From positions 1 to 53,260 of the IMG/VR virus record IMGVR_UViG_3300031983_000023: 53,260 nt of DNA. One strand, given 5' to 3'. The translations under genes were made by a program, and so were the position numbers. The stretch comes from a virus. The notes beneath the pieces were generated by a model. That model was given only the letters and a program-made list of their open reading frames with translations. It was not told the origin of the DNA and did not search any database. Each line of letters starts with the position of its first letter. Position 1 is the first letter of the stretch. This document shows, piece by piece, positions 1,636 to 36,618 of the stretch.

Positions 1636-1641
1636 CGGTTT

Positions 1642-3399
1642 CTACGGTATCTCCGAAAGATTCAGGGTCCCCACGGCCGTGATCTCGTCCGCCGCCAGGA
1701 CTATCGGAAACGAGGGCGCGGTTATGGTGGTGTAGTCCACGCCGAACACGAAGACGTCTATATAGCCCAGGGCGTCGGATTCCTGCCTGTCCTTCCCGAA
1801 GTCGGCGCTGTCCAGGTTCGCCACCAGCCTTTCGACCTGGGTATAGTCGGCGGCGTCGAAGCTCGCCGAAAAAATCGAGTTGATCTTTTCCACGGCCCCC
1901 TCGATCCCCCCGCTTTCGTAGGCGGTCGCGATCTCGAACCCGGACTCGGAGAGGAACAGCTGCCAGGCGAGCTCGAAGTAGGGCTCCACGTTCGCGTAGG
2001 TGTACCCCTCCTTGACCTTCGCCGCGGAGGTGACGTTCACCGGCGTTATCGTGGCGGCGAGAAAGCGCGCGTCTATGGACTCCAGGATGCTCCTGTCTAT
2101 CAGGTACGCCTCGATCGCGGCCCTCAGGGCCGGGGACGGGTTGCCTCCCCCGGTGGCCACCCCGACGACCTTGCAGCTCAGGGGGCCGTACTCGTTGCGG
2201 GCCACGCTCACGAGGGAAACCCCCCCGTAGGCCAGGGCCAGCGCCTCCCCGTCCTCCGAGGTGACAAAGCGGTTCCTGGCCTTGAGCAGCAGGGGGGCCA
2301 GCCTCTTGGACACCTCCATGTTCTCCTCGTCGGCTCCGCCCGTCAACGCCGACGGGTTGGACACCCCGTCTATGTCGGAGTCGGTGCCGGCGTAGATATT
2401 CACCTGGCCCACCACGGAAACGTTGCTGTCGTCGCCGCCCCCGGTGGCGTAGGAGACGTACACGCTGAAAGCCTCCGGAATCTTGCCGTAGGTTCCGTTG
2501 CCGAACTGGAGAAGCGCCGAACCGTCGCTGAGAAATACCAGCTTGAAGTCCTTATCATTCGGCAGGGAGTCCACCCAGAAGTCGATTCTTGTCCACGCCT
2601 CGGAGTTGACCACCACGGCGATGGTGGCCTCCAGTATCCCCTTGTGCGCGAGCGCGAACTCCAGCCAGAGGGACTGGCCGTCGGAGTCGCCGGCCACGTA
2701 CTGGTCCACGGTCTCCTGCTGGTAGACGGTTTTCCGGAAGGAGAAGAGCGTTATCGTGTGCGTGCCCGTGCCCTGGGAGGTGATGTCTATGTAGGCCCCG
2801 GCGTAGGCGTACTCGAGGGATTCGGCGAAGCGGATCTCCGTCGCGCTCAGCCTTATCACCCAGTAGTCGGTCGCCAGCGCCAGGCCCCCGGGCAGGGTCC
2901 CGGAGCTCGTCAGTCTCACCAGCTCCCCGGTCAGGAAGTCCCTCGCCAGGTTCGTGAACTTGTCGCTCGCTATGTCCACGTCGGCCGCCGCCTCCGTGTC
3001 GGTCACCTCGCCGACCACCTCCTGGCTTCTTGCCTCGAACCTCTTGGCGGAAATTGCCAGGGAGCCCTGGGTTGTCGCGGCCAGGTCCCCCTGGGAAATC
3101 GTCACGGGAAAGGACACGCCGCGGTCGAGATAGAACAGTATCTCGCCGCTGGAGGGGGAGCGCCCGGCCGGGAAATAGTCCAGCAGGGCGACGAGGTCCG
3201 TGACCGCCCGGCGGGTGAAGGAGGTGCGCAGATAGGCGTTGTTCGCCCCGGCGTTGTTCCACATGGACAGCACGTCCCCGACTCCGGCGACGCACCGCTT
3301 CCACCAGGCCGGCTTGTCCTTCAGCAGCAAATCCGAGTTTATGTCGCCGAGTATGGAGTTGTAGGTCCTCGAGGTGTACTGGATCGGGTTTCCTGCCAT
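1642..3399 (-). CDS. Baseplate J-like protein
   Basis: 585 residues, larger than P2 gpJ (about 300). The baseplate J core is visible around residues 335-420: NPSALTGGADEENMEVSKRL, followed by the VTSEDGEALALAYGGV segment and then VGVATGGGNPSPALR. The N-terminal 300 residues are beta-rich extra domains. In contractile tails this protein forms the wedge ring around the hub. It is flanked by gp25-like and gpI-like genes, the usual order. The family assignment is good; the extra N-terminal domains are not assigned. Confidence 0.85.
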   Translation of the reverse strand: MAGNPIQYTSRTYNSILGDINSDLLLKDKPAWWKRCVAGVGDVLSMWNNAGANNAYLRTSFTRRAVTDLVALLDYFPAGRSPSSGEILFYLDRGVSFPVTISQGDLAATTQGSLAISAKRFEARSQEVVGEVTDTEAAADVDIASDKFTNLARDFLTGELVRLTSSGTLPGGLALATDYWVIRLSATEIRFAESLEYAYAGAYIDITSQGTGTHTITLFSFRKTVYQQETVDQYVAGDSDGQSLWLEFALAHKGILEATIAVVVNSEAWTRIDFWVDSLPNDKDFKLVFLSDGSALLQFGNGTYGKIPEAFSVYVSYATGGGDDSNVSVVGQVNIYAGTDSDIDGVSNPSALTGGADEENMEVSKRLAPLLLKARNRFVTSEDGEALALAYGGVSLVSVARNEYGPLSCKVVGVATGGGNPSPALRAAIEAYLIDRSILESIDARFLAATITPVNVTSAAKVKEGYTYANVEPYFELAWQLFLSESGFEIATAYESGGIEGAVEKINSIFSASFDAADYTQVERLVANLDSADFGKDRQESDALGYIDVFVFGVDYTTITAPSFPIVLAADEITAVGTLNLSEIP

Positions 3400-3400
3400 T

Positions 3401-3811
3401 CTATCCTCCGGGGCGGAGCGTCCCCGCCCTTATGGTCCTGGCGTTCTTGTAGCTCGCGTAGGGGATGTACTGGAGCCTCACCTCGACCTCGCCCCTGGCG
3501 GGGGACTCCACGGATATGGTCGACTGGCTGGCGGCGGCCCTCCGGTCGCGGGTGCCGCTCGTGCCGTCCCCGACCTCCTGGTTTCTCCTCGAAATCCACT
3601 CCACCACGGCGAACCTGAGCTCTATCTGCATCGCCAGGCTCTCGGGAAAGTTTTCGTAGGATGGCACCCCCGCGCCGAAATCCCTGTGGTAGAGCATGCT
3701 CCTTTTCGGCTGCATGAGCCCCTGCAGCAGGTCGGAGTCTATCTCGAACAGCAGGTCCAGCTGCCCGTAGTAAAAAAAGGCGTCGATGTGCGAAAGCTGC
3801 CCGAACATCAC
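3401..3811 (-). CDS. Baseplate wedge protein, gp25/gpW-like
   Basis: 136 residues. The N-terminal segment DLLLEIDSDLLQGLMQPKRSM-like and the C-terminal VEVRLQYIPYASYK strand fit small gp25-type wedge proteins, which sit between the spike and baseplate J genes. The middle SQSTISVESPARGEVEV is a linker plus strand. Identification rests mainly on size and position, so other small baseplate proteins remain possible. It overlaps the spike gene by 4 bases at its start. Confidence 0.5.
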   Translation of the reverse strand: MMFGQLSHIDAFFYYGQLDLLFEIDSDLLQGLMQPKRSMLYHRDFGAGVPSYENFPESLAMQIELRFAVVEWISRRNQEVGDGTSGTRDRRAAASQSTISVESPARGEVEVRLQYIPYASYKNARTIRAGTLRPGG

Positions 3812-4392
3812 TCCCCCTTGATCTCTTCGCTCAGCAGCCCAGAGGGCTGGGACGTCGAGGTCTGCGGAATCCCGCTCACCCCTCCCCCGGTTGTCACCCC
3901 GAGGTGCACGTGCGCGTTGAGCCAGGTCACCAGGCTTGAGAGAAACGAGTCGAGGTCGCCGCCCCTGACAAAGGCCTGGGTACCCCCGGCTATCCTGAGA
4001 ACCTTGCCGTCCGCGTCGTAGACGATCCTCATGCTACCAACCGCGTCGGAGAAGATCACCCTCGTGCGCGGCCCTTCGTACCCCGGCACCTCGGACCCCT
4101 TCATTTCCGCCATCTTCCCTATGTACACGGCCCGTGCCGGGTCGCCCGCCATGAAGTAGACCTCCACGTACTCGCCCAGCTCCGGGGTCACCTGCCCGCC
4201 GCGGTGCCTCGGCCAGGCCCAGGGGCCCTCGTCCTCGCTCGAGTGGCCGAGCTCCGCTATCGCCACCAGAACCCTGCCCCTCCCGAGCGGGTCCTTGTTG
4301 TCCAGGACCTTGCCGGAGTAGTGCCGGAGGAACCTGGTTTCATTCCGCACTATCTCCTCTATGATGCCCAGCTCGGTGCGGGAAATGTCCAT
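3808..4392 (-). CDS. Baseplate spike protein, gpV/gp5 OB-fold type
   Basis: 194 residues, with the ATG at 4392 overlapping the stop of the hub gene (TAATG). Residues 25-110 have the OB-fold pattern of gpV/gp5 spikes: GKVLDNKDPLGRGRVLVAI, then PELGEYVEVYFMAGDPARAVYIG. The later IVYDADGKVLRIAGG region resembles the start of a beta-helical needle. HVHLGVTTGGGVSGIP near the C-terminus contains an HxH pair like that binding metal at spike tips. It punctures the host envelope at the tail tip. Confidence 0.75.
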   Translation of the reverse strand: MDISRTELGIIEEIVRNETRFLRHYSGKVLDNKDPLGRGRVLVAIAELGHSSEDEGPWAWPRHRGGQVTPELGEYVEVYFMAGDPARAVYIGKMAEMKGSEVPGYEGPRTRVIFSDAVGSMRIVYDADGKVLRIAGGTQAFVRGGDLDSFLSSLVTWLNAHVHLGVTTGGGVSGIPQTSTSQPSGLLSEEIKGE

Positions 4393-5633
4393 TAAAGCAG
4401 CCCCTCCCCGGTCGGCGTTATGGAGAACGCGTCGACGACCTGGATGCCCCCCGTGTAGCCCTCCGGCCCTATCTTGTGCGACACCCGCCGCATGTAAAAT
4501 TTCGTGTTGGCGTTCCCTATCTGGTCCGGGAACCCGTTGCCGAAGGTCGCCTCGTTGGAGATCGCGTGCAGTGGGCTGCCGAGCACCCGCAGGTTGACGG
4601 TGTATCCGAGCCCCTGCGGGGCGGTGTAGCTCTCGATTTCCACGAAGAACCTTTTCACCTTCTCGAAGCTCTCCACGGCGAGGTACTCCCGGACGAACCG
4701 CACCTTCTCCTCGAAGCCGCCCTCCAGGCCCCTCCTCTCCAGCTCCGCGCTTATCTTCTCCGGGGCCAGGCGCCAGCCCACGACCCGGTCGTCCTCCACC
4801 ACGTAGCGGATGAAGCGGGGCTGGCCGTCCACGAAGCTTATCCGGACGTTGTCGCCCAGCCCGCTCTCGCCGTTGTGGTTCACCCAGTCGTAGCTGATGA
4901 CGTTGCTCACGGTCCCCCCGTAGTCGAAGAAGTTGCCCGTTCCCGAGCCGCCCGTCACCCACCTGTTGAACGGGCTGGAAACGATAAGGCCGGGGTCCAC
5001 GAACATGGCCGCCAGGGAGCCGTCCGGCATGTAGCCGATCTTGAAGGACACCCTCATTTCCCTGCCGAGCCTGGCCAGAAACTTGAACGCGCTCTCCCAC
5101 CGCGGCAGCTCCCTCCCCCCGGAAAGCGGGTCGCTGGCCGCCGAGAAGCGGACGTCCCTCTTTACTATGCCGAGCTCGTCCATGACCTCCCTGATCACCC
5201 CGCCCTTGGAGCCGCCCCTGTAGACCTTCCTCTTCTCCTCGCCCCTCTGGTCCAGGGCGGTGAAGCTGCACTTGTAGGTCGTCACCCCCTTCTGGTCCCC
5301 CCCGCCGGCGGGGCTCGTCACGAAAACGAGCAGCCCGCGGCGCTCCAGGGTGCCGGTCATCTCGTCGACGTTGAACTCCCTGCCCAGCGCGCTCTCCAGG
5401 GATAAATCGCCCTTAACGTACCCCCAGGTTATGGACAGCCTCGCGCCGACCCGCAGGAGCCTCGAGTGCACGTTGTTGGGGTCCCTCAGCATCAAGGAGC
5501 CGGAGTCCAGCTTGTCGAGCTCCTCGACCACCTCCAGGGACATGACGTCCGCGCTCAGGGACTCCCCCAGGCCCAGGTCCGGGGATTCCACGGTGAAGAA
5601 CGAGGAGTCCTTGTTCGCCAGGCCCATGCTCAC
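4392..5633 (-). CDS. Tail hub, late control gpD/gp27-like
   Basis: 413 residues. It has the layout of the gpD/gp27 hub family: an N-terminal beta domain (VMSLEVVEELDKLDSGSLML, then LLRVGARLSITWG) and a middle region with RWESAFKFLARLGREMRVSF, the conserved hub motif (usually S.w.fl..La...g). A C-terminal beta domain ends the protein. It forms the ring linking the tail tube to the spike, whose gene follows directly. Order and motif together make the call fairly firm. Confidence 0.75.
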   Translation of the reverse strand: MSMGLANKDSSFFTVESPDLGLGESLSADVMSLEVVEELDKLDSGSLMLRDPNNVHSRLLRVGARLSITWGYVKGDLSLESALGREFNVDEMTGTLERRGLLVFVTSPAGGGDQKGVTTYKCSFTALDQRGEEKRKVYRGGSKGGVIREVMDELGIVKRDVRFSAASDPLSGGRELPRWESAFKFLARLGREMRVSFKIGYMPDGSLAAMFVDPGLIVSSPFNRWVTGGSGTGNFFDYGGTVSNVISYDWVNHNGESGLGDNVRISFVDGQPRFIRYVVEDDRVVGWRLAPEKISAELERRGLEGGFEEKVRFVREYLAVESFEKVKRFFVEIESYTAPQGLGYTVNLRVLGSPLHAISNEATFGNGFPDQIGNANTKFYMRRVSHKIGPEGYTGGIQVVDAFSITPTGEGLL

Positions 5634-5902
5634 AGCGGTATCTCCAAAGTCTTGAGCTTCCCCAGGTCGAACCCCGCGTCGACTATCCTCTCCCTGTTGT
5701 GGTCGAATATCTTGTGGGCCATGGATTCGCCGCCCCGCCCGTAGACGTCGTCCTGGCTCGCTATTTCGTCAAGCCACTGCCTCCCGGCAAGGTCTATGGA
5801 AAACCACGCCCGCTGACCCTTCGGCTCGCGCATGTCCTTGACCGCCACCGATCGGCCGGCGCTGTTCGTGAAGCTCACGGTCTCGACGTCGATGTACCTC
5901 AA
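5630..5902 (-). CDS. Small tail/baseplate protein, family not recognised
   Basis: 90 residues, translationally coupled (4-base overlaps) between the CIS-tube-like gene and the hub gene. It starts MRYIDVETVSFTN and ends FDLGKLKTLEIPL. There is no membrane segment or signal. P2 gpX/LysM-type proteins occupy this position, but I see no clear LysM motif. A structural role in the tail is inferred from context alone. Confidence 0.6.
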   Translation of the reverse strand: MRYIDVETVSFTNSAGRSVAVKDMREPKGQRAWFSIDLAGRQWLDEIASQDDVYGRGGESMAHKIFDHNRERIVDAGFDLGKLKTLEIPL

Positions 5903-6495
5903 TAAGGCCTCCCCACGAACAGGCTCCTCGCCTGTGAATAGCCGGGAATGAACTGCCCGGCGAGCATGGCGAAGCGCCGGAACTCCTCCTCCGCCTTGTA
6001 GAGCGGGTGCGTCTCGTCAAGCAGGAGCTCTATGTCTATGTCGCTGTACTGCGGATAGCCGCGCTGGTTGACCCAGTGGCGGCGGTTGACCGCCTGGACC
6101 CTTGCCACCCAGTACACGAGCGGCACCTGGCTGCCGGTCCCCCAGTAGTACAGCACCTTCGGGGTGGGGGAGAACTGCCCCGTCCTTTTCAGCCTCCTGC
6201 CGAGCCTTCCGGAGGCCTGGTTTCTCAGGGCGAGGTACTGCTGGAGCAGCAGGATGTTTCCGATCGTGTTGTTCCGCTTGATCAGCGGAATGGTGAAGCT
6301 CACCTTCTGGTTGCCGCCCCCGGCCGGGTTGATCGGCGCGTAGTTGAGACCCGGGATCGGGGTCTCGGCCAGTATTATGTCCTTGGAGCTCGTTATGTCG
6401 CCGGGAACGAACGGCGAGGTTATGAGCTGCCTGTTGCTCAGGTCGTACAGGAACCACGGAATGTTGCCCTGGAAATCCGGAATCTGCAGGCCCAC
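5899..6495 (-). CDS. Contractile injection system tube-initiator/LysM-type baseplate protein
   Basis: 198 residues. The sequence follows the pattern of CIS tube/gp53-like proteins: a beta-rich first half (VSFTIPLIKRNNTIGNILLL), a PTPKVLYYWG strand, then YWVARVQAVNRRHWVNQRGY followed by DIDIELLLDE. These proteins dock the inner tube on the hub. It sits between the tape measure and hub genes, the usual place. Moderate confidence; no LysM repeat is evident. Confidence 0.55.
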   Translation of the reverse strand: MGLQIPDFQGNIPWFLYDLSNRQLITSPFVPGDITSSKDIILAETPIPGLNYAPINPAGGGNQKVSFTIPLIKRNNTIGNILLLQQYLALRNQASGRLGRRLKRTGQFSPTPKVLYYWGTGSQVPLVYWVARVQAVNRRHWVNQRGYPQYSDIDIELLLDETHPLYKAEEEFRRFAMLAGQFIPGYSQARSLFVGRPY

Positions 6496-6496
6496 C

Positions 6497-7750
6497 TTAG
6501 CCCCCCGCCCTCACCATGTCGTCCATTATCTTTTCGCGGAGCCCCTGCGCCACGCCCTCCCCGAAAAGCCTGCCGGCGGCCTCCGCGCTCCCCTCCGTCA
6601 CGCTCACGGAAATGTTGTTCGTTACCTGGATCTTGGCGCCCCCGAAGGGAAGCTGCGTTCCCCTCGCCGCGAATATGGTGTCCTCCGGGTGCGTCTCCAC
6701 CACCTGGCCCCTCTTGGTGATGATCACGTCCCGCACGGTCTTTGGAGGGCCGAAGCCGAACTCCGCCCCCTTGAAGCCTTCCTTGTATGCCTCGAAGGTG
6801 CTCCTCAGCCAGCCCAGGAAGCCCCCGCCGCGGCTCTCGACCTCCTTCTTGAACTCCTCCTCGGCCTCCCTGCCCCACTCCGGGCGCTCCTCCCCCCGGA
6901 AAAGCCAGCCCCAGGTCTGCTGGAACCTCTCGGATTCGAGGCCCTCCCTTATCCTCTCGATCATGTCGGCGATCCACTCCAGGGCCGCCGCTATGCCTTC
7001 CAGGGTCTTGACCACGATCCTGCCGACGGTTCCGCCCAGCATCTCGAAAAAGTCCTCGTACCCCTTGAAATCCGTCCCGAATATCGCCGCGGCTATCCTC
7101 CGGAAGGCCTCCCCGATCTTTTCCAGCGGCTCCCCTATGCCGGCCAGGCCGTCTATGAACCCCCTGAGAAACGCCCCGCTAAGGCGGGTGACCATCTTGA
7201 CTATTTCGCCCACCGCCTCGGCAACCGGCCGCAGCAGCTCGCCTATAAAAATTGCGGCCAGGGACACCTTGAAAAGGAAAAGGTTCATGCGCCGCTCGAA
7301 CTCTCCCAGGTCCCCGAATATCGCGGCGCCCACCTGCCTGGCGATTTTCAGGAACTGCCGTATTATGGTCATTCCGGCGCGGAACACCCCGACGAGAATA
7401 TGGCCCCACCTCGTGAAGGCCGTGCGGTGTTCCCGCACCCAGTCGAGCATCCTCTGGAGCAGCGGCATTATCTCGCGCCTCAGCGGGAAGAGCAGGTTCT
7501 TGAGGAATATTCCCTTGGCTATGCCGAAGGCCTGCCCGACTTCGGGCATTCCCCGCAGGACGTTCCGGACGGCCAGGAACCCCGCCGCCAGGGCCCCCAC
7601 CTTCGCGAGCACCTTGCCCATGCCGGCGCTCACCCCCTGGGCTATCTTCTTGGCGCTGGTCTGCATGGAGTCCATGCCCCTGGTCACCTTCCGCATGCCG
7701 TTCTGGAAGGGCTTCTCGTCGAACGTGAACGTTACGTCTCTTTCAGGCAT
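6497..7750 (-). CDS. Tail tape measure protein
   Basis: 417 residues, short for a tape measure, suggesting a short tail. Residues 35-65 and 150-180 are hydrophobic helices (VGALAAGFLAVRNVL, VSLAAIFIGELLRPVAEAV), and most of the protein is predicted helical with amphipathic stretches. The C-terminus ends in a beta strand with VTNNISVSVTEGSAEAAGRL, common in short phage tape measures. It follows the frameshifted chaperone directly. The function is to set tail length and pass into the host membrane at injection. Confidence 0.75.
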   Translation of the reverse strand: MPERDVTFTFDEKPFQNGMRKVTRGMDSMQTSAKKIAQGVSAGMGKVLAKVGALAAGFLAVRNVLRGMPEVGQAFGIAKGIFLKNLLFPLRREIMPLLQRMLDWVREHRTAFTRWGHILVGVFRAGMTIIRQFLKIARQVGAAIFGDLGEFERRMNLFLFKVSLAAIFIGELLRPVAEAVGEIVKMVTRLSGAFLRGFIDGLAGIGEPLEKIGEAFRRIAAAIFGTDFKGYEDFFEMLGGTVGRIVVKTLEGIAAALEWIADMIERIREGLESERFQQTWGWLFRGEERPEWGREAEEEFKKEVESRGGGFLGWLRSTFEAYKEGFKGAEFGFGPPKTVRDVIITKRGQVVETHPEDTIFAARGTQLPFGGAKIQVTNNISVSVTEGSAEAAGRLFGEGVAQGLREKIMDDMVRAGG

Positions 7751-25189: not shown

Positions 25190-26761
25190 TCACCTCGCCA
25201 TCGCCAGGATACGCCTGGCGACGAGCATGTATGCTATGGCGTGCAGGTAGTGGTCCGGGTCGTCGCCGGCCCAGACGTACTTGCCCCGCCTCTCGTCGTA
25301 GACCCTGGTCAGCGCCCCGAGGTGCTCCCGCAGCTCCGGCATTTCCTCCGCCTCCCTGGGCAGCACGAGCTCCCCGGTGAGCAGGGCCTCCTTGACCGCG
25401 TCGATCGTCTGCGTCCTCTCCACGGTTATGATCTTGTGCGCCCCGTCCACTATGTCCCGCTTGACTTCGCCGTAGAAGCAGTAGAATCCGCCCCGGAAAC
25501 TCCTGGCGAACTTCTTGGACAGCCGCCCCTCCGGGAGGGCGTCGATCACCCCGGCGACGCACCTGTACTGCCTGTACAGCCCGGCCAGCTCGGAGAAGTC
25601 CTCCACCTCCCCGGAGCCGAAGGAGCGCAGGAGCCTCACCACCAACCTGGAACCCTGGACTTCCCCGATCGCCACGTACATGGCGTTGCCCACGTCGCAG
25701 CCCAGCAGGCACCTGCCCTTCCCCGGGCCCATGGTGTGATCCCCGACCTCCCCTGCATCCAGGGAAATCTTTGCCCCGGAGGCCTCGTAGGGCAGCCCGA
25801 GGTCGCCGTTGTAGAACCTCTGCATAACGCTGTCGTTGACCAGGCCCTTCTCGAACCTCTCGAGCAGCTCGGCGACTCGCACTTTCGTGCTGAACATCTT
25901 CGAGATGTGGTACCCCGAGCCTACGCCCCGCTCGTTCGTCCTGACCCAAGCCCCCTCCGCGTACCTGTCCAGCTCCTTGCCGCACTCGCAGATCACCCGT
26001 ATGTCCCTGCTCCCCTCGCGATCCCACCTCTTGTCGATCACCGCGTAGTCCCCAGTATCGAGCCTCTGGACCACGTGCTTGAAGAAATCCGGATACACCC
26101 AGCGGCCGCACGCCTGGCACTTAATGTTCCACTGCTTCCGGTCGCTCGCCCTGTACAGCGCAGCCATGCCGTGGCCCGAGACGGAGGGCTGCCCGACCCT
26201 CGTCTCCGTCTTGTCCTCCGCCGCGCTCAGCCTCTCCACGGCCATGTTGAGGTTGCCCTGGTCGCACTCGTCCAGCTCGTCCACCACCAGGTCGTCCGCG
26301 GGGTACTCGGTGAAAACGCTCGTGGTGTTTGATCCGGCGAAGGCTATGCTCCCTATCCCGAGATGCTTGAGGTACATGCTCTCCGACTGCTTGGTTGTCA
26401 TCATCCTGGAGGCCCGGAGTACTTCCTTATAATAGGCAGTGAACTCTATCGTCCGGTCGACTCGATTCTTGACGAAGCGGCTCGCGAGCTGGAAGGTGGG
26501 CATAACGTAAAAAACCGCCCTCCCGTCTATGGCCGGGGTGATTGCCTTCATGCCGAGCAGCCATTCCGACGCCCCATTTTGCGTCGCCTTCTGGAGCACC
26601 ACCAGCGGGCTGTCGTCCGTGTAGAGCGCCTTGAGATACACCCTGCCCCGGAAGTCAAGCCTCTTATCCCTGTGAGTCCGGTGGTGCCGCAAGACAGCCC
26701 TCACCCGCCGGTTCGACTTTGCGAGCCCCTCGTCAATCCTTGCCTTTTCTCCGACGAGCAT
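25190..26761 (-). CDS. terL: Terminase large subunit
   Basis: 523 residues from ATG at 26761, after GGGGGAGG, overlapping the small subunit by 29 bases. ATPase: VVLQKATQNGASEWLLG is a terminase-type Walker A (QxGxS form), DDLVVDELDECD is Walker B. An internal zinc ribbon (CQACGRW, CECGKEL) is unusual but found in some GpA-like terminases. Nuclease: LLGCDVGNAMYVAI gives the first Asp and GDDPDHYLHAIAYM the last. It pumps DNA into proheads and cuts concatemers. Confidence 0.88.
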   Translation of the reverse strand: MLVGEKARIDEGLAKSNRRVRAVLRHHRTHRDKRLDFRGRVYLKALYTDDSPLVVLQKATQNGASEWLLGMKAITPAIDGRAVFYVMPTFQLASRFVKNRVDRTIEFTAYYKEVLRASRMMTTKQSESMYLKHLGIGSIAFAGSNTTSVFTEYPADDLVVDELDECDQGNLNMAVERLSAAEDKTETRVGQPSVSGHGMAALYRASDRKQWNIKCQACGRWVYPDFFKHVVQRLDTGDYAVIDKRWDREGSRDIRVICECGKELDRYAEGAWVRTNERGVGSGYHISKMFSTKVRVAELLERFEKGLVNDSVMQRFYNGDLGLPYEASGAKISLDAGEVGDHTMGPGKGRCLLGCDVGNAMYVAIGEVQGSRLVVRLLRSFGSGEVEDFSELAGLYRQYRCVAGVIDALPEGRLSKKFARSFRGGFYCFYGEVKRDIVDGAHKIITVERTQTIDAVKEALLTGELVLPREAEEMPELREHLGALTRVYDERRGKYVWAGDDPDHYLHAIAYMLVARRILAMAR

Positions 26762-27194
26762 TCGCCTCCCCCGCCTTCGTCTTGGGTTTCCGCAGGGCTT
26801 CCGGTTCGATGAAAAACTGGGATAGCAGCTCCCCGTACCACTCCTCGTCCTCTGCAGATAGCTCCATGTCATAGCTCAGGTTGACCAGCCGTCCTTCCAC
26901 GCTCACGTTCAGCTGAGGCAGCCCGTCGAGATAGTTCATGAAAAGGCGCTGCGCCGCCACGTTTCCCTTGATCACTTCCTGAAACATCGACCGGATGAAC
27001 ATTTCTTTTCGCTTCACCAGGACGGTGTGCATTCTCTTGCCCTTGCCGACTTCTATCTCCTGGGAGCCGTCCAGGTACTCCCGGATCATGTCGGTATAAG
27101 TCCGCCCCTTCTTTGGCCTTCCCGCGGGATTGCCGCTTGTACCAGGCGGCCAGGGCCGGCCCCTGGGTTTCCCTTCCTCTGGTATGTTCTCCAT
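26733..27194 (-). CDS. Terminase small subunit-like (DUF5681-type)
   Basis: 153 residues. N-terminus PPGTSGNPAGRPKKGRTYTD is the NPAGRPK motif of DUF5681 proteins, which commonly precede phage terL. The rest is helical (VAAQRLFMNYLDGLPQLNVS). It would recognise the packaging start site. Its ribosome site is weak (GAGGGGAAAA), and the guide array lies 82 bases upstream, so the array's transcript probably runs into it. Confidence 0.75.
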   Translation of the reverse strand: MENIPEEGKPRGRPWPPGTSGNPAGRPKKGRTYTDMIREYLDGSQEIEVGKGKRMHTVLVKRKEMFIRSMFQEVIKGNVAAQRLFMNYLDGLPQLNVSVEGRLVNLSYDMELSAEDEEWYGELLSQFFIEPEALRKPKTKAGEANARRRKGKD

Positions 27195-27276
27195 TTTTCC
27201 CCTCTTGCTATTCTCCCGCTGTTTTACAACGGCGGTTTAAACGGTGACGGTTTTCGCTTTCGCAGGTTCGCCGCCA

Positions 27277-28007
27277 ACCTCCGCTCCCACCGGCTGGGCT
27301 TCTCTCCGGCCGTGGCCCGCTCCCGTGGTCTGGGCTTCTCACTCGCCGGTGGCCCGCTCACCCACACTGGGTTTCTCCACTACCCTGGCCCGCTCTGCTC
27401 AAGTGGACTTCTCCGTCGCGGTGGCACGCTCTCTCGACCTGGGTTTCTCGGGGAAGATGGCCCGCTCCGGTGGTGTGGGTTTCTCCCAGGACATGGCCCG
27501 CTCGGTCCGGGTGGATTTCTCTGGAGAGGTGGCCCGCTCCATCCGCATGGGCTTCTCGCCTACAGTGGCCCGCTTCCCGTCCGTGGGTTTCTCGCTCTTT
27601 TTGGCTCGCTCTATCACAATGGATTTCTCATGGTGCCTGGCCCGCTCATCGAGCCTGGATTTCTCCCGGGCGATGGCCCGCTCTTGCAAGCTGGGTTTCT
27701 CCTCTGCCTTGGCCCGCTCTCCAGCCGTGGGCTTCTTGGACTTCCTGGCCCGCTCGCTCCTGGTGGGCTTCTCCCTGTTCTTGGCCCGCTCTGAGCATTT
27801 GGGTTTCTCGTTGGTCATGGCCCGCTCGACCGGCCTGGGTTTCTCGCGGTTCGTGGCTCGCTCCCCCCGTTTGGGTTTCTTAAGTTCGATGGCCCGCTCC
27901 AGTCGTCTGGGTTTCTCCACGATCGTGGCCCGCTCCCCCTCAATGATTTTCTCTTGGAAAGTGGCTCGCTCCCCGCCTGTGGGTTTCTTGCCGGAGGTGG
28001 CTCTTCC
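27277..28007 (-). repeat. TIGR-type tandem interspaced guide RNA array
   Basis: About 40 conserved 10-base repeats occur every 18 bases, alternating between two kinds. On the minus strand type A is GAGCGGGCCA and type B is GAGAAACCCA (with single-base variants such as GAGAAGCCCA and GAGAAATCCA). Each pair is separated by 8 fully variable bases, giving a 36-bp double unit about 20 times. Positions run from 27295 in 18-base steps, with one 9-base spacer at 27341-27349. The edges (27277-27286 and 27998-28007) are degenerate. All spacers I compared (about 39) differ from each other. The array lies directly downstream of the Tas-like gene on the same strand. A 36-nt unit holding two short guides is the known TIGR (tigRNA) design. 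Confidence 0.9.
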
Positions 28008-28824
28008 TCCACTCGCTATGTTTGTGCCCCAGATACTCCTCGTCGTAGAGGGGCCGTATGGGCAAGCCCTCCAGTGCCCGCCATATGACGTACAGGTCCT
28101 TGATGAACATTTTCACCATGTAGCGCCTGGCCGCGTTGTGCTGGTGTCCCGCCTTTGGCCGCTTCGGATCAGTCGGGTTCTTGCTCTCCTCGCCCCAATC
28201 CTCCGACTCAAGACGGTGCTTCACGTTGTCATAGTAAACTCTATACGGGCTGCCATGCACGAGAAACTGCTTGCCGAGCACGCCCAGCAGCTTGGATTTC
28301 AGGAAGGCGTTGTATGGGCGCACAAAGCCCTTCGTTTTTTTGTCGCCGCGGATCAGGGTATCGGTCGCGACCAGTACCCTTTTCCCCTTTATCTTTTTCC
28401 AGACCTTCCCGCGCACAAGGCCTGGATTCATACCGGCGAACTGCCAGCCTTTGGAGACGTTCTCGAACTTGTGTATGTCGAACTCTGTAACGATCACGGC
28501 AGCCAGCATCTCGCCGACTCCCTTCACGTCCCTAAGATAGCTAATCCAGAGCGGGTGCTTGTGGATTAGAGGGACGATCGCCTTTATCATGGCGAGCTCA
28601 AATTTCAGTTTATCGTCCCTCCGCTCCATGAGTACCATGAGCAAAGCGGCGTCGCGGTCCGGCCTCCCCTTTTTGGCCTCTCCATTTTTCGTCAAGCCAA
28701 GTCGGCCGTCCAAGGCTATACGCTCGTCTTGAGCGTCATAATAAGCCCGCGTGAAGATGCGGATCGACTCCATCATCTCCGGGGTAAACCTTTCATCCGG
28801 GTCCGGACAACATACCGTTTTCAT
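27940..28824 (-). CDS. tas: Tas-like protein (IS110/Nop-type C-terminal domain), guide array partner
   Basis: 294 residues. An N-terminal helical part (residues 60-90, coiled-coil-like) precedes the IS110 Tnp20/Nop-type core: LRDVKGVGEMLAAVIVTEFD (residues 97-116, helix-hairpin-helix), WQFAGMNPGLVRGK (127-140), and GHQHNAARRYMVKMFIKDLY (226-245). The RuvC/DEDD domain of IS110 and any HNH or RuvC fusion are absent, so this resembles the nuclease-free form of Tas proteins. ATG at 28824 overlaps the ParB-like stop (ATGA). The last 23 codons read into the first repeats of the array and stop inside it. It probably binds the 36-nt guides; targeting without cutting is inferred. Confidence 0.85.
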   Translation of the reverse strand: MKTVCCPDPDERFTPEMMESIRIFTRAYYDAQDERIALDGRLGLTKNGEAKKGRPDRDAALLMVLMERRDDKLKFELAMIKAIVPLIHKHPLWISYLRDVKGVGEMLAAVIVTEFDIHKFENVSKGWQFAGMNPGLVRGKVWKKIKGKRVLVATDTLIRGDKKTKGFVRPYNAFLKSKLLGVLGKQFLVHGSPYRVYYDNVKHRLESEDWGEESKNPTDPKRPKAGHQHNAARRYMVKMFIKDLYVIWRALEGLPIRPLYDEEYLGHKHSEWRKSHLRQETHRRGASHFPRENH

Positions 28825-29531
28825 GCCGATACCCCCACTTTCTTGAGAATGTCGGCAATCAGAGCGTAGACCTCCTGGAGGAGCTTGATCGTTTGGTCAT
28901 CGTACTCGATGGCTCCCTGGGCCTTCGCCGCGTTGATGAATCCTCTGAGAAGCATCGTCGGCGCATTCCACCCCCCTGCTGTTCTTGCAAAATGTTCCTG
29001 GTCGCTGTCGGCTTTTTTGCCATCAAGATGCTTGGCAAGCGGAGCAACAGCGGCAGATACCGCTATCCTCGTCCCGTTCTGGGTGACGATGGATCTCCCC
29101 TCCACCAGTTTCCGGACACGCTCCACGTCCATGTCCAGGGCCTTGGCGATTATAGGCCAGGGCACGCGGTCCCTCCGCATGCCGAGGGCAAAATGCACCT
29201 TGTCCTTCGGGGTGAGCTGCAGCGCCCCCGAGTTTGCGGAATGCGCCGCGTCAATCCGCATCGCGACCTCGTTCGCATACTCCCGAAGGATAACCACGGT
29301 TTCGGCCTTGTCGCCCTGCACTCTGAGCAGCGCTTTCGCCCTGTGGAAACCGTCAATGATCCGCAGACTTTTCGAGTCCACTACAATCGGGGTGTTGAAA
29401 CTACGCCCCGACAGCAGGATTTCCTCCAGCTTGTGAACGTTGGTTGAATCTAGCTTTCCGGCTTCGTGCCTCGGCCAGATTCTCCAGTCCTGGACCAGTT
29501 CCAGAACTTTGACCTTTTTTTTTGTGTCCAT
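28821..29531 (-). CDS. ParB-like nuclease-fold/DNA-binding protein
   Basis: 236 residues from ATG at 29531 after GGAGG. ParB N-domain signs: LEEILLSGRSFNTPIVVDSK, then the RIIDGFHRAKALLRVQGDKA box (the ParB 'G.hR..A' motif). LTPKDKVHFALGMRRDRVPW followed by PIIAKALDMDVERVRKLVEG is a helix-turn-helix. The codon mix is more AT-rich than the neighbours, as in the Tas gene. It is the first gene of the Tas operon and could regulate it or help load it on DNA. Whether it belongs functionally to the guide system is unknown. Confidence 0.75.
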   Translation of the reverse strand: MDTKKKVKVLELVQDWRIWPRHEAGKLDSTNVHKLEEILLSGRSFNTPIVVDSKSLRIIDGFHRAKALLRVQGDKAETVVILREYANEVAMRIDAAHSANSGALQLTPKDKVHFALGMRRDRVPWPIIAKALDMDVERVRKLVEGRSIVTQNGTRIAVSAAVAPLAKHLDGKKADSDQEHFARTAGGWNAPTMLLRGFINAAKAQGAIEYDDQTIKLLQEVYALIADILKKVGVSA

Positions 29532-29617: not shown

Positions 29618-29646
29618 AATATATCTCTGTTCTATTACGTAGGCAA
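29618..29646 (-). promoter_or_regulatory. Promoter of the ParB-Tas-array operon
   Basis: Minus strand TTGCCT (29646-29641), 17-base spacer, TATATT (29623-29618). Start expected near 29611, about 80 bases before the ParB-like ATG. The array, 1.6 kb downstream on the same strand, has no promoter of its own that I can see, so this one is likely to produce the guide precursor. Confidence 0.6.
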
Positions 29647-32258: not shown

Positions 32259-32498
32259 TCAGCGGCCGTCCGTCAGCCTGCCGTAGTCGTCCATGATTTT
32301 TTGCTTGGCAAGCGCCTCGCCCACGGCGTCAACAATCATCTGCTTTAGGCTGGACGCCTCGACATCGATCCGCCCCCCGGTTTCTTTGTCGAACACCCGC
32401 ACGTGATCCACCGCCGGATTGGACAGGGCCTTCTCTAATACACCCAGGTCAAAATCCTGCACCTCGCCCCTTTCCCCGCTTTTATACACTTCCTGCAT
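32259..32498 (-). CDS. Small early protein, unknown
   Basis: 79 residues, mixed charge (DLGVLEKALSNPAVDHVRV). It overlaps the upstream ParB-like end by 17 bases. No motif recognised. Confidence 0.5.
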   Translation of the reverse strand: MQEVYKSGERGEVQDFDLGVLEKALSNPAVDHVRVFDKETGGRIDVEASSLKQMIVDAVGEALAKQKIMDDYGRLTDGR

Positions 32499-33096
32499 TC
32501 GCTTCTCCTTCCTCTCTTCTTGTCTCTTTCAGCAGCCACGCCACGGCGTCGCTGTTGGTCCTCAAGCCCTCGCGCATCCTCACCGCCTCGATGCGCTCCT
32601 TTGCCGTCCTGGACACGGCCAGGGACACGCTGTCCCCGCCCTCCCCGGATCTCGAGGCCAGGGCCTCCCAGTCGAACCCCACCATTTCCCTGAAATGCGC
32701 CAGCTCGGCATCGGTATACGGCATGGTCTCCGCCAGGTCCCCCAGGTCGAACTCCTGCAGCATGGCCTCCACCGTCTCCGACAGGGACAGGTAGTCGGTC
32801 GGGAAGTTCGTCTCGTTCGTCTCCACGGCCAGGCGCTTTGCGGCCGCGTTGGAAATCGGCCCGGTGTCGAAGCACAGGGCCTCTTTCACCCCCAGGGCCT
32901 CCAGGGCATCCAGGCGGTGGTTGCCGTTGATCACTTCCCAGCGGCAGCACCCGCTCGACGGGCGGACGATCAGGTTGATCAGCTGGCCGTTTCTCCTCAT
33001 GTTGGCCTCCAGGGCAGCCTGCATTTCCGGATCGTCCCTCTTGTAGTTCCACGGGGCTTTGTCCAGCACGTGCACCTCCAAGGTCCTCCAGCCCAT
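32482..33096 (-). CDS. ParB-like domain protein, copy 2
   Basis: 204 residues from ATG at 33096, chosen because it aligns with the start of the copy at 33949-34533. The paralog pattern is clear: APWNYKRDD, MRRNGQLINLIVRP, EVINGNHRLDAL, VETNETNF. The ParB nuclease/CTPase fold motif is NGNHR. The C-terminus (VSRTAKERIEAVRMREGLRT) may be a small helical DNA-binding part. No partner ParA exists in the genome. Confidence 0.75.
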   Translation of the reverse strand: MGWRTLEVHVLDKAPWNYKRDDPEMQAALEANMRRNGQLINLIVRPSSGCCRWEVINGNHRLDALEALGVKEALCFDTGPISNAAAKRLAVETNETNFPTDYLSLSETVEAMLQEFDLGDLAETMPYTDAELAHFREMVGFDWEALASRSGEGGDSVSLAVSRTAKERIEAVRMREGLRTNSDAVAWLLKETRREEGEANAGSV

Positions 33097-33127
33097 CACT
33101 CGCCCCCACGGCCGTGCCAAAATGCGG

Positions 33128-33952
33128 TCACCATCCAGCCTCTTGTAATTGCCGAGCCGCAATTATATATGGCCCGCCCCAATCTCTTCTAAGTTGTCGC
33201 CATTCCGGAGACGTTGTACCGGTTCTGTTTCTCCAGAGCATCGCCATGGGCATGAATCCAAGATTCAGTGTTTTCTGAAGTCGGATTGCTGCACCCTCCA
33301 GTGTGTCTTTTGGATATCCGATCAAAACAAAACAGCGAAGAGCATGCGAGGCAACCGTAAACCCAGCTTCAAACAGCATTTCTCCCGCCCGAACCAAAGG
33401 TTTATAATCATCGGGCGCGTCGTAGGCGAAAAATATTTGCTTTGGTTTTAATCCGCGCAAGAGCTCAGCGTGCCAATCTTTCAACCTGGCAGCTTCCAGG
33501 CCCCCAGTAAATTGAGCCTGCTCTGGCTGTCTTCTGAGCATTTGAAACACAGCTTTAACGTGCTCGTCCGAACATGCCAGCAGATTGTCATCGAGCACAT
33601 TCCAACCATCCCGGATCGGCAGCTCCCGCACATTTCCCTCCCGCCGCCAGACAGAACAAAACCAGCAGCGATTTGGGCATCCTCGAGAAGTGATTACATA
33701 TCCCTGCTTTAAATACATTCCTGGCTCAAAATCACCGCTGGCCATGCCGGTTGCAGGTCCTCCGATTTTCACTGGCGCTATTTTCTTCCAAGCCTGGGCT
33801 AGTCTCTCCGCCAGCGGGAGATCCCAGGTAAAAGCTACCGAAATATGCACTTCGTCGATATCATCAGGCACAAACAAATCCGGCTCGCCTATAAAAGAAT
33901 ATGCATCGATGGGCGTCGCCCTGGTTCGGCGTGGGAATACTCGAATTATCAC
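33128..33952 (-). CDS. Radical SAM protein
   Basis: 274 residues from GTG at 33952 (GTGA overlap with the upstream ParB-like stop). ITSRGCPNRCWFCSVWRREG carries CxxxCxxC, the iron-sulphur cluster motif of radical SAM enzymes. The preceding VKIGGPATGMASGDFEPGMY resembles the B12-binding-like lead-in of some radical SAM proteins, although it is short. Later strands (AYDAPDDYK, CFVLIGYPKDTLEG) fit the partial TIM barrel. The DNA is noticeably more AT-rich than its surroundings, suggesting transfer. Substrate unknown. Confidence 0.85.
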   Translation of the reverse strand: MIIRVFPRRTRATPIDAYSFIGEPDLFVPDDIDEVHISVAFTWDLPLAERLAQAWKKIAPVKIGGPATGMASGDFEPGMYLKQGYVITSRGCPNRCWFCSVWRREGNVRELPIRDGWNVLDDNLLACSDEHVKAVFQMLRRQPEQAQFTGGLEAARLKDWHAELLRGLKPKQIFFAYDAPDDYKPLVRAGEMLFEAGFTVASHALRCFVLIGYPKDTLEGAAIRLQKTLNLGFMPMAMLWRNRTGTTSPEWRQLRRDWGGPYIIAARQLQEAGW

Positions 33953-34533
33953 CGTTCCCCCGCCAGGAGCTCCAGGGCGCCGGACGCCTTCCGCAGGTTC
34001 CGCTCCAGCGCAAACTCGACCAGCTCCTCGTACACCTCCCTGGTCACGCTGACGGAAGTCGCAAGGCTCTCCCCCCAGGCGTCCCCGAACTGCGTCCAGT
34101 CGAACTCGAGCAGCGAGGCGTAGTCCCCGATCTCCTCCACGGTGAAGGGCATCGTCCCGGACAGGTCCTCCGTCCCGAACTCGCCGGCGGCCTCGGCCAC
34201 CACCTCCGCGAGCCGGACCTGGTCCGGCCGGAACCGGGTCTCGTTGGTTTCCACGGACACCCTCATGGCCTCCTCATCGCTCACCTTCCCGAGGTTCACG
34301 CAAACGGCAATCTCCATTCCGGCGGCTGCCATGGCGGGGAGCCGGTGGTTTCCGTTCACCGCCTCGTAGCGGTCCCCCGGCTTCTCCCTGACTATCAGAT
34401 TTTCGACCTGACCATTTCTCCGGAGATTCCGCTCGAGCTGGCCCTGCAGGAATAGGTCCTCCTTGCGATAGTTCCATGACGCCATGTCGATCGACACCAG
34501 CGGGATCTCCGTCAATCTCACGATATTTCTCAT
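33949..34533 (-). CDS. ParB-like domain protein, copy 3
   Basis: 194 residues from ATG at 34533 after GGAGGAGAG (ATGA overlap with the resolvase). Shows ASWNYRKED, NLRRNGQVENLIVREKPG, AVNGNHRLPAM and VSVETNETRF. Clearly paralogous to 32482-33096, the radical SAM gene lying between the two. It retains the NGNHR box. Likely DNA-binding; real role unknown. Confidence 0.8.
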   Translation of the reverse strand: MRNIVRLTEIPLVSIDMASWNYRKEDLFLQGQLERNLRRNGQVENLIVREKPGDRYEAVNGNHRLPAMAAAGMEIAVCVNLGKVSDEEAMRVSVETNETRFRPDQVRLAEVVAEAAGEFGTEDLSGTMPFTVEEIGDYASLLEFDWTQFGDAWGESLATSVSVTREVYEELVEFALERNLRKASGALELLAGER

Positions 34534-35135
34534 TCTCTCCTCCCGATTATTTCCCTCAGCCTTTCCGCCGCCCCCTCCCCGAAGTCGGTTTTCCCGGCGG
34601 CTATCATCTCCGCCGCCTTGAGCATCAGCCAGGCGTCGGCCACGTCCACGGAGGGGAACATCCTCCCATACTTCGCCCGGACCGCCGCCAGGTAGTCCCT
34701 CGTCCTCGTCTTTCTCACGTGCCGGAAGGCCTTGCCCATGGTCGCCGCCTTCCACGTGTTCTGTGCCAGCTCCACGAACGGGACCCCGCGCCTCCACAGG
34801 AGGTAGCGTATCGCCCCGCCGATCTCCCCCTGGGTCACCAGGTAGTTGCCCTTCGCCCCGTAGGCGTACTGCTCCACCACGGCGAAGCGCTTCTCCGGGT
34901 CGAGCCTGGAGATCTCCCCTCCCACGGCCGCCAGGATTTGCTGCACGGCCCTCCACTTTCCGGTCGAGCTCCCGGAAGCCACGGTCTGGTAGTACTCGAC
35001 CCCACGTATCCGGGTCACGATGCCGGTCGATCTCAGTGACGGGTCTATGGAGATCGCCTCCATAAAAAGCGGGGCGGGATTGTCCGCCCCTGCTTCCGCA
35101 AAGGGCGCCTCCATGACTTCCTCGCCCCACTCCAT
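34530..35135 (-). CDS. RuvC-like Holliday-junction resolvase
   Basis: 201 residues from ATG at 35135; ATG at 35114, with GAGGAAGTC before it, is an alternative. The RNase H fold metal residues fit a RuvC-like enzyme: AISIDPSLRSTGIV (first Asp), FAVVEQYAYGAKGN (Glu), and a final PSVDVADAWLMLKAAEM (VADA.L.A pattern). Phage RuvC proteins cut branched DNA before packaging. It is coupled to ParB-like genes on both sides. Confidence 0.8.
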   Translation of the reverse strand: MEWGEEVMEAPFAEAGADNPAPLFMEAISIDPSLRSTGIVTRIRGVEYYQTVASGSSTGKWRAVQQILAAVGGEISRLDPEKRFAVVEQYAYGAKGNYLVTQGEIGGAIRYLLWRRGVPFVELAQNTWKAATMGKAFRHVRKTRTRDYLAAVRAKYGRMFPSVDVADAWLMLKAAEMIAAGKTDFGEGAAERLREIIGRRE

Positions 35136-35136
35136 G

Positions 35137-36618
35137 TTACTCTTCCTTCTCCCTCTTGGGGATCCGCACATCGAACTCCCCGGCCATCTTCTCGAGCACC
35201 TTCCACCGCTCCGTCTCCGCGGCCCTTCTGCCGAAAGACACTTCGCTCTCCTCGACTTCCAGGGCGGCCACGAGCAGGCACCTCACGATGAACGGCTTGA
35301 GCTCCTCCTCCGGAAGCCCCCGGATTTGCCTCAGCCCGGTCTCCGTCCAGCCCTCCCGGTAGTATTCGCCCTCTTTTTTCGGAGGCCTCTCCCATCCGTA
35401 CAGCCCGCATAGGTCCTTGCGGTAATTGTCCCACAGCCTGTCGAAGAACTGCAGCGCCAGGATCCTCTCGACCCCGTGGGTCAGGCCCGCCCTGGCCTTC
35501 TCCGCCGCCGCGTCGATGAGCTCCTTCCGGAAACCCTTCTCCCTGCTCACCAGCTTCCTCGTTTTCTTGGCCTTTTCCTTCTCCTCTTTTGTCGTGGCCG
35601 TCCCGGACCTCGCTCCTCTAATGATGCCCCAGGTCAAGCGCCCCCTGCGGGCGCCCTCCGTCACCAGGCACCGGACGGCGCCTTCGTCCTTTTTTTTGCA
35701 CTCGGTCCACTGGTAGACGTCAAGCACCCCTTCCGGCGTCTTTCCGGTGTGCCAACCCTCCGAGACCATTTTGTACTCCTCACCCTCGAGCTTCCGCTGT
35801 TGGGCCTCCACGAGGGCGTCCAGCTTCCCGTTGTAGCAGGCCGGGTCCGTGCAGAGGTCGTCCTTCCCGACGTCCGGAAAAAGCGCGGGCTGCGCCCCGG
35901 ACCTCTTGAGGCACTCGGCGCAGGTCCCCGCCTCCGGAACCAGCCCCGCGTCGTCCCTCTTGAACGGAGCGTCCCCCAGCCTGGTCAGCACGCTCTGGGC
36001 GATCATGTCCCGTAGTTCCTTCGCCGAGTACTCGCCGCCCCATCTCGTGTGATCCTTCATCTGTTTTAGGCAGGCGATCTGGTCCTCCGGCTGGAGCCCG
36101 CACAGCGCCAGGGCGTGCCCGATGTTCATCCCGCCGGCAGCGAATGTTTCCCTTGCCTCCGGCTCCAGGTCCAGCAGCCTGACCCTTCTCTGCACGTGCG
36201 AGACGGAGCAGCCGATCTCCCTCGCCGTCTCCTCCGCGTCCATGAGCTGCATGAGCTCCATAATTGCCACGGCCTCGTCCAGCGGATGGAGGTCCTCCCT
36301 CTGCACGTTCTCCACGATGCTCGCCGCCCTCGCCTCGTCGTCGCTCATTTGCATCACCGAGCAGGGCAGGTCCTTGAGCCCCACGATCTTGGCGGCCATG
36401 AACCGCCGGGCCCCGACCACTATCTCCCAGTCCTCCCCGTCGGGCCTCACCACGATGGGCTGCAGCACCCTGCCTACCGCCCTTATCGACGCGGCCAGAT
36501 CCTCGAGCTTCTCCGGGCTGGCCCCTATCGTCCTCCTGTTGTTCCTGGCCGGGTGCAAGCGCTTTATCGGCAGCATCCTCACGTCCGGGCCCTCTTTCGT
36601 CAATCCTTTTTCTTTCAT
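35137..36618 (-). CDS. ParB/RepB-like protein with Cys-rich C-terminal extension
   Basis: 493 residues. Standard ParB N-domain: PARNNRRTIG, then GRVLQPIVVRP and VVGARRFMAAKIVGL, followed by ASIVENVQREDLHPLDEAVA (ENxQR..L.P.E.A) and the KorB-type HTH AREIGCSVSHVQRRVRLLDL. Unlike cellular ParB (about 290 residues), it has a long C-terminal part with cysteines (CAECLKRSG, CTDPACYNG) and helices. Many phage ParB homologues of this kind exist without ParA and may act in DNA handling or regulation. Confidence 0.85.
   Translation of the reverse strand: MKEKGLTKEGPDVRMLPIKRLHPARNNRRTIGASPEKLEDLAASIRAVGRVLQPIVVRPDGEDWEIVVGARRFMAAKIVGLKDLPCSVMQMSDDEARAASIVENVQREDLHPLDEAVAIMELMQLMDAEETAREIGCSVSHVQRRVRLLDLEPEARETFAAGGMNIGHALALCGLQPEDQIACLKQMKDHTRWGGEYSAKELRDMIAQSVLTRLGDAPFKRDDAGLVPEAGTCAECLKRSGAQPALFPDVGKDDLCTDPACYNGKLDALVEAQQRKLEGEEYKMVSEGWHTGKTPEGVLDVYQWTECKKKDEGAVRCLVTEGARRGRLTWGIIRGARSGTATTKEEKEKAKKTRKLVSREKGFRKELIDAAAEKARAGLTHGVERILALQFFDRLWDNYRKDLCGLYGWERPPKKEGEYYREGWTETGLRQIRGLPEEELKPFIVRCLLVAALEVEESEVSFGRRAAETERWKVLEKMAGEFDVRIPKREKEE

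What the first reader, a model, noticed from the sequence alone, without database searches (positions are those of the whole stretch)
27277..28824. TIGR-Tas-like guide system carried by a tailed phage
An IS110/Nop-type protein without its own nuclease domain is followed on the same strand by about 40 ten-base repeats. The repeats are of two alternating types, with 8-base spacers that all differ. The 36-bp double unit matches the dual-spacer guide design of TIGR-Tas systems described in 2025. Spacers vary at all 8 positions regardless of codon position, which argues against a repetitive protein. A nuclease-free member beside terminase genes could block or regulate target DNA instead of cutting it.
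Basis: partly seen in the sequence, partly recalled or inferred. Interest (0 to 1): 0.97.

Follow-up and report, generated by a model that had tools for sequence, protein, structure and literature searches.

The report
Phage TIGR-TasA guide system with TasParB
An apparently complete, undescribed phage genome carries a textbook TIGR-Tas locus (a small nuclease-free RNA-guided DNA-binding protein, a ParB-like partner and 20 two-part guides); it is a clear new member of a family described in 2025, and what its guides target in nature is still unknown.

Summary
The observation and the family call are both right. On the minus strand, 28007 to 27281, lie 20 units of 36 nt: edge repeat GAGCGGGCCA, 8-nt spacer A, loop repeat GAGAAACCCA, 8-nt spacer B (one spacer is 9 nt). 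The array follows a 294-aa solo-Nop protein (27940-28824) that passes NCBI's curated TIGR-Tas model (127.6 bits, cut-off 100); its predicted fold confidently hits only TasH/TasR structures. This is the tasParB-tasA-array operon already described in the founding paper (PMC12045711). Of 45 tas loci, 41 have a 36-nt array, against 1 of 87 control fragments. The repeats resemble those of Salicola phage CGphi29, whose 36-nt guides were sequenced. Coding, IS110 and CRISPR readings fail. The record has 55-nt direct terminal repeats, so the genome looks complete; no guide targets it, and 341 guides from 19 phages do not hit their own records above chance. No natural target was found. Most likely role: RNA-guided, non-cutting DNA binding against other elements or host loci, perhaps loading TasParB there (inferred). 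New member of a known kind; target and TasParB role remain open.

The parts
28821..29531 (-). tasParB, 236 aa ParB-fold protein; ATG at 29531 with a GGAGG ribosome site just upstream; overlaps tasA by 4 nt (ATGA)
   Evidence: Homologues beside tasA in 16 of 44 related loci; AF2 pLDDT 92.9; Foldseek hits ParB/Noc/KorB, best E 8.5e-7; invariant GxHR motif
27940..28824 (-). tasA, 294 aa solo-Nop Tas protein without nuclease domain; C-terminal ~25 aa run into the array
   Evidence: NCBIfam NF052498 127.6 bits, cut-off 100; PDB TasR/TasH; AF2 pLDDT 89.4; Foldseek TasH/TasR
27281..28007 (-). TIGR dual-repeat array, 20 units of 36 nt: edge GAGCGGGCCA, spacer A 8 nt, loop GAGAAACCCA, spacer B 8 nt; one 9-nt spacer; ends in a truncated edge (GGAGCGG) at 27287-27281
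29618..29646 (-). weak sigma-70-like promoter (TTGCCT-17-TATATT) upstream of tasParB; inferred only
   Evidence: 1 found in the region, 1.4 expected by chance
26733..27194 (-). DUF5681-domain gene next downstream, likely small terminase (context, not part of the system)
   Evidence: Pfam DUF5681 E 1.1e-13; position before terL
25190..26872 (-). large terminase subunit (context)
   Evidence: Pfam GpA_ATPase; phrog_675 E 3.1e-70

Best explanation
This is a TIGR-TasA system of the TasParB subtype in a tailed phage. tasParB, tasA and the array are read as one minus-strand unit. The array transcript is cut inside the edge repeats into 36-nt tigRNAs, each held by a TasA dimer through box C/D-like ends (AG...CCA) of the edge and loop repeats. 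[quoted passage not shown] TasA has no nuclease, so it binds and probably bends or blocks the site rather than cutting it. Because TasParB is translationally coupled to TasA and has a ParB fold, I think it is most likely brought to or loaded at the guided site. The targets are most likely other mobile elements or host genes, not this phage. Shown here: family, architecture, association, absence of self-targets. Inferred from studied relatives: processing and two-strand binding. Inferred only: TasParB recruitment and the nature of the targets. Likelihoods: TIGR-Tas membership ~0.98; non-cutting guided DNA binding ~0.85; directed at other mobile elements ~0.5; TasParB loading at the target ~0.3.
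For: NCBIfam TIGR_Tas_endo above cut-off; TasR/TasH by profile and by fold; canonical dual-repeat array with no codon constraint; 36-nt arrays beside 41 of 45 tas loci vs 1 of 87 controls; repeats like those of CGphi29 SpTIGR, AAGCGAGCCA/AAGACAACCA with 8-nt spacers, for which 36-nt RNAs are reported; same operon in L001 with a clear terminator; TasParB neighbours cluster in one part of the TasA tree and fold as ParB; tasParB-tasA operons with 10-nt repeats described by Faure et al.; no self-targets.
Against: No RNA or binding data for this locus. No clear terminator after the window array. No target found anywhere, so the element-directed role rests on absence of self-targets plus published speculation. 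The GERR CTPase motif of ParB is GFHR in TasParB, so clamp loading by CTP is uncertain. Chance hits prevent a meaningful whole-database target search with 16-nt guides.
Confidence: 0.85

Rival explanations
1. The TasA-TasParB pair acts on the phage's own replication, partition or packaging: guides place ParB at sites on the phage genome.
For: ParB partner; the locus sits in or next to the packaging module in the window, L008, L011, L014 and Mvi-JY20; three further ParB-like genes in this phage.
Against: No guide matches this apparently complete genome above chance; 341 guides from 19 phages do not match their own records. Placement varies: other relatives sit beside replication genes.
Confidence: 0.1
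2. The guides act on host genes, silencing or rewiring transcription or host defence without cutting.
For: No self-targets; spacer GC follows contig GC across 34 loci (r 0.77), as expected if targets share host/phage composition.
Against: No target in about 0.5 and 0.64 Mb of two MAGs that hold relatives, which is only part of each; host of the window phage unknown. The GC correlation could also come from mutation bias.
Confidence: 0.3
3. The array is a repetitive protein (e.g. the 441-aa plus-strand ORF 27244-28569 or the 173-aa minus-strand ORF).
For: The unit of 36 is a multiple of 3 and one frame stays open through the array.
Against: Spacers vary at all positions alike; stop counts in each frame fit shuffled spacers; one 9-nt spacer shifts the frame; relatives keep the repeats with freely varying spacers.
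Confidence: 0.02
4. An IS110-type transposase remnant with a bridge RNA, or a degenerate CRISPR.
For: Weak Pfam Transposase_20 (E 0.0019, below cut-off).
Against: No DEDD domain; NCBIfam IS110 16 bits vs cut-off 140; Foldseek prefers TasH/TasR by orders of magnitude; 10/8-nt alternating units are not CRISPR repeats; no cas gene found beside it.
Confidence: 0.01

Closest known systems
TIGR-TasA with tasParB operon (Faure et al. 2025, PMC12045711, methods section on tasParB, fig. S14)
   Same: tasParB-tasA operon, dual-repeat array with 10-nt edge and loop repeats next to the genes, solo-Nop TasA
   Different: New phage; 20 units is above the usual 5-15; tasA 3' end overlaps the array
SpTIGR-TasH of Salicola phage CGphi29
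   Same: Edge AAGCGAGCCA and loop AAGACAACCA closely resemble the window repeats; 8-nt spacers; phage-borne
   Different: TasH has an HNH nuclease; no TasParB
TaTIGR-TasR (PDB 9mty)
   Same: Nop fold, tandem-spacer guide
   Different: RuvC nuclease fused; 9-nt spacers; box D is UG rather than AG
IS110 transposases (IS621, 8wt6) and box C/D snoRNPs
   Same: Nop-type RNA-binding domain
   Different: Extra catalytic or recruiting domain; single bridge RNA or snoRNA rather than an array
ParB / Noc / KorB
   Same: TasParB has the ParB fold
   Different: GxHR in place of GERR; genetic coupling to an RNA-guided protein

Membership tests
TIGR-Tas (TasA) | Tas protein with Nop domain related to TasR/TasH | tested here: met
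   NCBIfam NF052498 127.6 bits vs 100; PDB profile; Foldseek
TIGR-Tas (TasA) | No HNH or RuvC domain (TasA rather than TasH/TasR) | tested here: met
   The model is a solo Nop-type fold; no nuclease domain in Pfam
TIGR-Tas (TasA) | Adjacent array of two alternating 8-12-nt repeats with short spacers, 36-nt unit | tested here: met
TIGR-Tas (TasA) | Shared box C/D-like ends in edge and loop repeats | tested here: met
   AG at positions 2-3 and CCA at 8-10, each in 39 of 40 repeats; AG instead of the UG of TasR, as in CGphi29
TIGR-Tas (TasA) | Truncated edge at the 3' end followed by a rho-independent terminator | tested here: inconclusive
   Truncated edge present; no convincing terminator in the window, clear one in L001
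TIGR-Tas (TasA) | Processing into 36-nt tigRNA | not testable with these tools
   needs RNA sequencing
TIGR-Tas (TasA) | Two-strand tandem-spacer DNA binding | not testable with these tools
   needs biochemistry; no natural target found
TasParB-TasA subtype | parB-like gene in operon with tasA | tested here: met
   4-nt overlap; ParB fold; 16 of 44 relatives, clustered on the TasA tree with 2 label changes vs 9.4 shuffled
IS110 transposase | DEDD/RuvC catalytic domain and full IS110 model | tested here: not met
   16.2 bits vs cut-off 140
CRISPR-Cas | Single 25-36-nt repeat with similar-sized spacers and cas genes | tested here: not met
   two 10-nt repeats with 8-nt spacers; no PADLOC hit for TasA or TasParB
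ParB CTPase | GERR and ENxxR nucleotide motifs | tested here: not met
   GFHR, and the N without the preceding E, in TasParB

The most novel reading that the evidence does not exclude
TasA-tigRNA serves as a programmable parS: it loads the coupled ParB-fold protein TasParB onto any guided DNA site, silencing or mis-segregating rival elements or host loci by ParB spreading rather than by cutting.
Probability: 0.25. Interest if true: 0.85.

Novelty: new member of a known kind. Interest (0 to 1): 0.42.

Why it matters
TasA is described as the commonest Tas effector and the least understood one, and its natural targets and the role of TasParB are stated open questions. This gives a compact, apparently complete phage genome (55-nt direct terminal repeats) with 20 guides and a coupled TasParB, plus 44 related loci, and shows that guides of such phages do not target their own genomes. 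It also points to Microcystis phage Mvi-JY20, a GenBank phage with a recorded host, as a TasA system that could be tested directly.

Tried and rejected
Self-targets in the window: none above permuted pairings. All guides vs all held loci: a slight excess of 15/16 matches spread over all gaps and partly repeat-derived, rejected. A guide conserved in two related phages (L002, L046) resembles a universal 16S rRNA site, but matches of that quality to rRNA occur by chance, so dropped. 341 guides vs own 19 phage records, 1.03 Mb: chance level. Parts of two MAGs: chance level. Whole IMG/VR scans of two window guides and three Mvi-JY20 guides: hit counts and contexts look like chance or homologous copies of one site. 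Terminator behind the window array: no convincing hairpin. Close relatives of the phage: none in the phage collection by DNA for its first 25 kb; best large terminase in IMG/VR 47% identical. The 441-aa plus-strand ORF through the array: rejected as non-coding.

Full report
WHAT IS THERE. The window is an IMG/VR virus record of 53,260 bases whose first 55 bases recur at its end, so it looks like a complete phage genome with direct terminal repeats. Portal, head-morphogenesis, baseplate and terminase genes make it a tailed phage. On the minus strand run tasParB (28821-29531), tasA (27940-28824), a dual-repeat array (28007-27281), then a probable small terminase gene and the large terminase gene.

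THE ARRAY. Twenty units of 36 nt alternate GAGCGGGCCA (edge) and GAGAAACCCA (loop) with 8-nt spacers, one spacer being 9 nt. Box-like ends are kept in 39 of 40 repeats; period-36 identity is 18.7 standard deviations above shuffles; no other such array exists in the window. Spacers are all different, vary alike at every position, and stop counts in each frame fit shuffled spacers. A coding repeat is excluded for practical purposes.

THE PROTEIN. NCBI's curated TIGR-Tas family model matches at 127.6 bits, cut-off 100; the IS110 model gives 16.2 against 140. A profile of 28 relatives finds TasR (9mty) and TasH (21kl) in the PDB. An AlphaFold model (pLDDT 89.4) matches TasH and TasR structures in the first 11 Foldseek ranks, with IS621 far behind. 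There is no nuclease domain, so it is TasA. The last ~25 residues are read from the array itself, are low-confidence in the model and absent in relatives.

THE PARTNER. The gene immediately upstream overlaps tasA by 4 nt, as do several relatives' genes. Pfam does not recognise it at cut-off, but its model (pLDDT 92.9) matches ParB, Noc and KorB. Homologues lie beside tasA in 16 of 44 related loci and cluster on the TasA tree: 2 label changes against 9.4 for shuffled labels. The founding paper names this gene tasParB and describes the same operon with 10-nt repeats.

ASSOCIATION. Of 45 tas loci (44 relatives plus the window) 41 show a 36-nt array within 2 kb, against 1 of 87 control fragments. 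Edge and loop sequences are shared across the clade and resemble those of Salicola phage CGphi29 (AAGCGAGCCA / AAGACAACCA, 8-nt spacers), the paper's TasH example whose 36-nt guide RNAs were sequenced. That is the best evidence that the window array makes functional guides.

TARGETS. In the geometry reported for TasR/TasH (spacer A on one strand, spacer B on the other, gap 0-2) no guide hits this genome above permuted pairings. The same holds for 341 guides of 19 phages (this one included) against their own records, 1.03 Mb; several of these records are fragments. Parts of two MAGs that hold relatives gave nothing. Whole-collection scans return chance-level hits because 16 nt is too little for that database. 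So self-regulation is unlikely, and the true targets are unknown. Spacer GC follows contig GC (r 0.77), which fits targets in phages or hosts of like composition but could also be mutation bias.

MECHANISM. Shown: family, operon, array, association, lack of self-targets. By homology with tested relatives: 36-nt guides and two-strand DNA binding. Inferred: non-cutting interference, possibly with TasParB loaded at the site. TasParB keeps GxHR in place of ParB's GERR, so a CTP clamp is not assured.

VERDICT. It is a new member of a published subtype, valuable as a clean test case, not a new kind of system.

Noticed in passing
L045 (IMGVR_UViG_3300043219_000566, 216,501 bp), locus 1169-6534: A large phage contig with about 227 TIGR repeats (about 109 guides) on both sides of its tasA, far above the usual 5-15 units, with quite variable repeats.
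   Followed up: partly
L287 (Microcystis phage Mvi-JY20, PP438412.1), locus 3974-5107: A GenBank phage with recorded host carries a TasA gene annotated as hypothetical, a 36-nt array (ATGCGAGCC / ACGAAACCC, about 9-nt spacers) and a terminator just before its large terminase gene.
   Followed up: partly
L002:9921 and L046:406: Two related phages share one guide (15 of 16 nt, CCGCAAGG/TTAAAATC) while their other guides differ and the arrays sit in different places: one guide seems to be kept.
   Followed up: partly
window 32482-33162, 33949-35130, 35137-36618: Three further ParB-like genes in the same phage, one with full ParB_N and HTH domains.
   Followed up: no
window 33128-33952: Radical SAM-like gene (Pfam E 4e-6, just below cut-off) in the phage genome.
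   Followed up: no
L048 (JAUXAU010000001.1), 5313-7566: TasParB-TasA with an array of about 19 or more units on a Thermoplasmatota MAG contig, so the subtype may reach archaea or their viruses.
   Followed up: partly
L288 (Mycobacterium phage Pippin), 3869-4579: Distant Tas-like hit (26% identity, E 8e-4) beside a Cas4-like exonuclease, but no 36-nt array nearby.
   Followed up: partly
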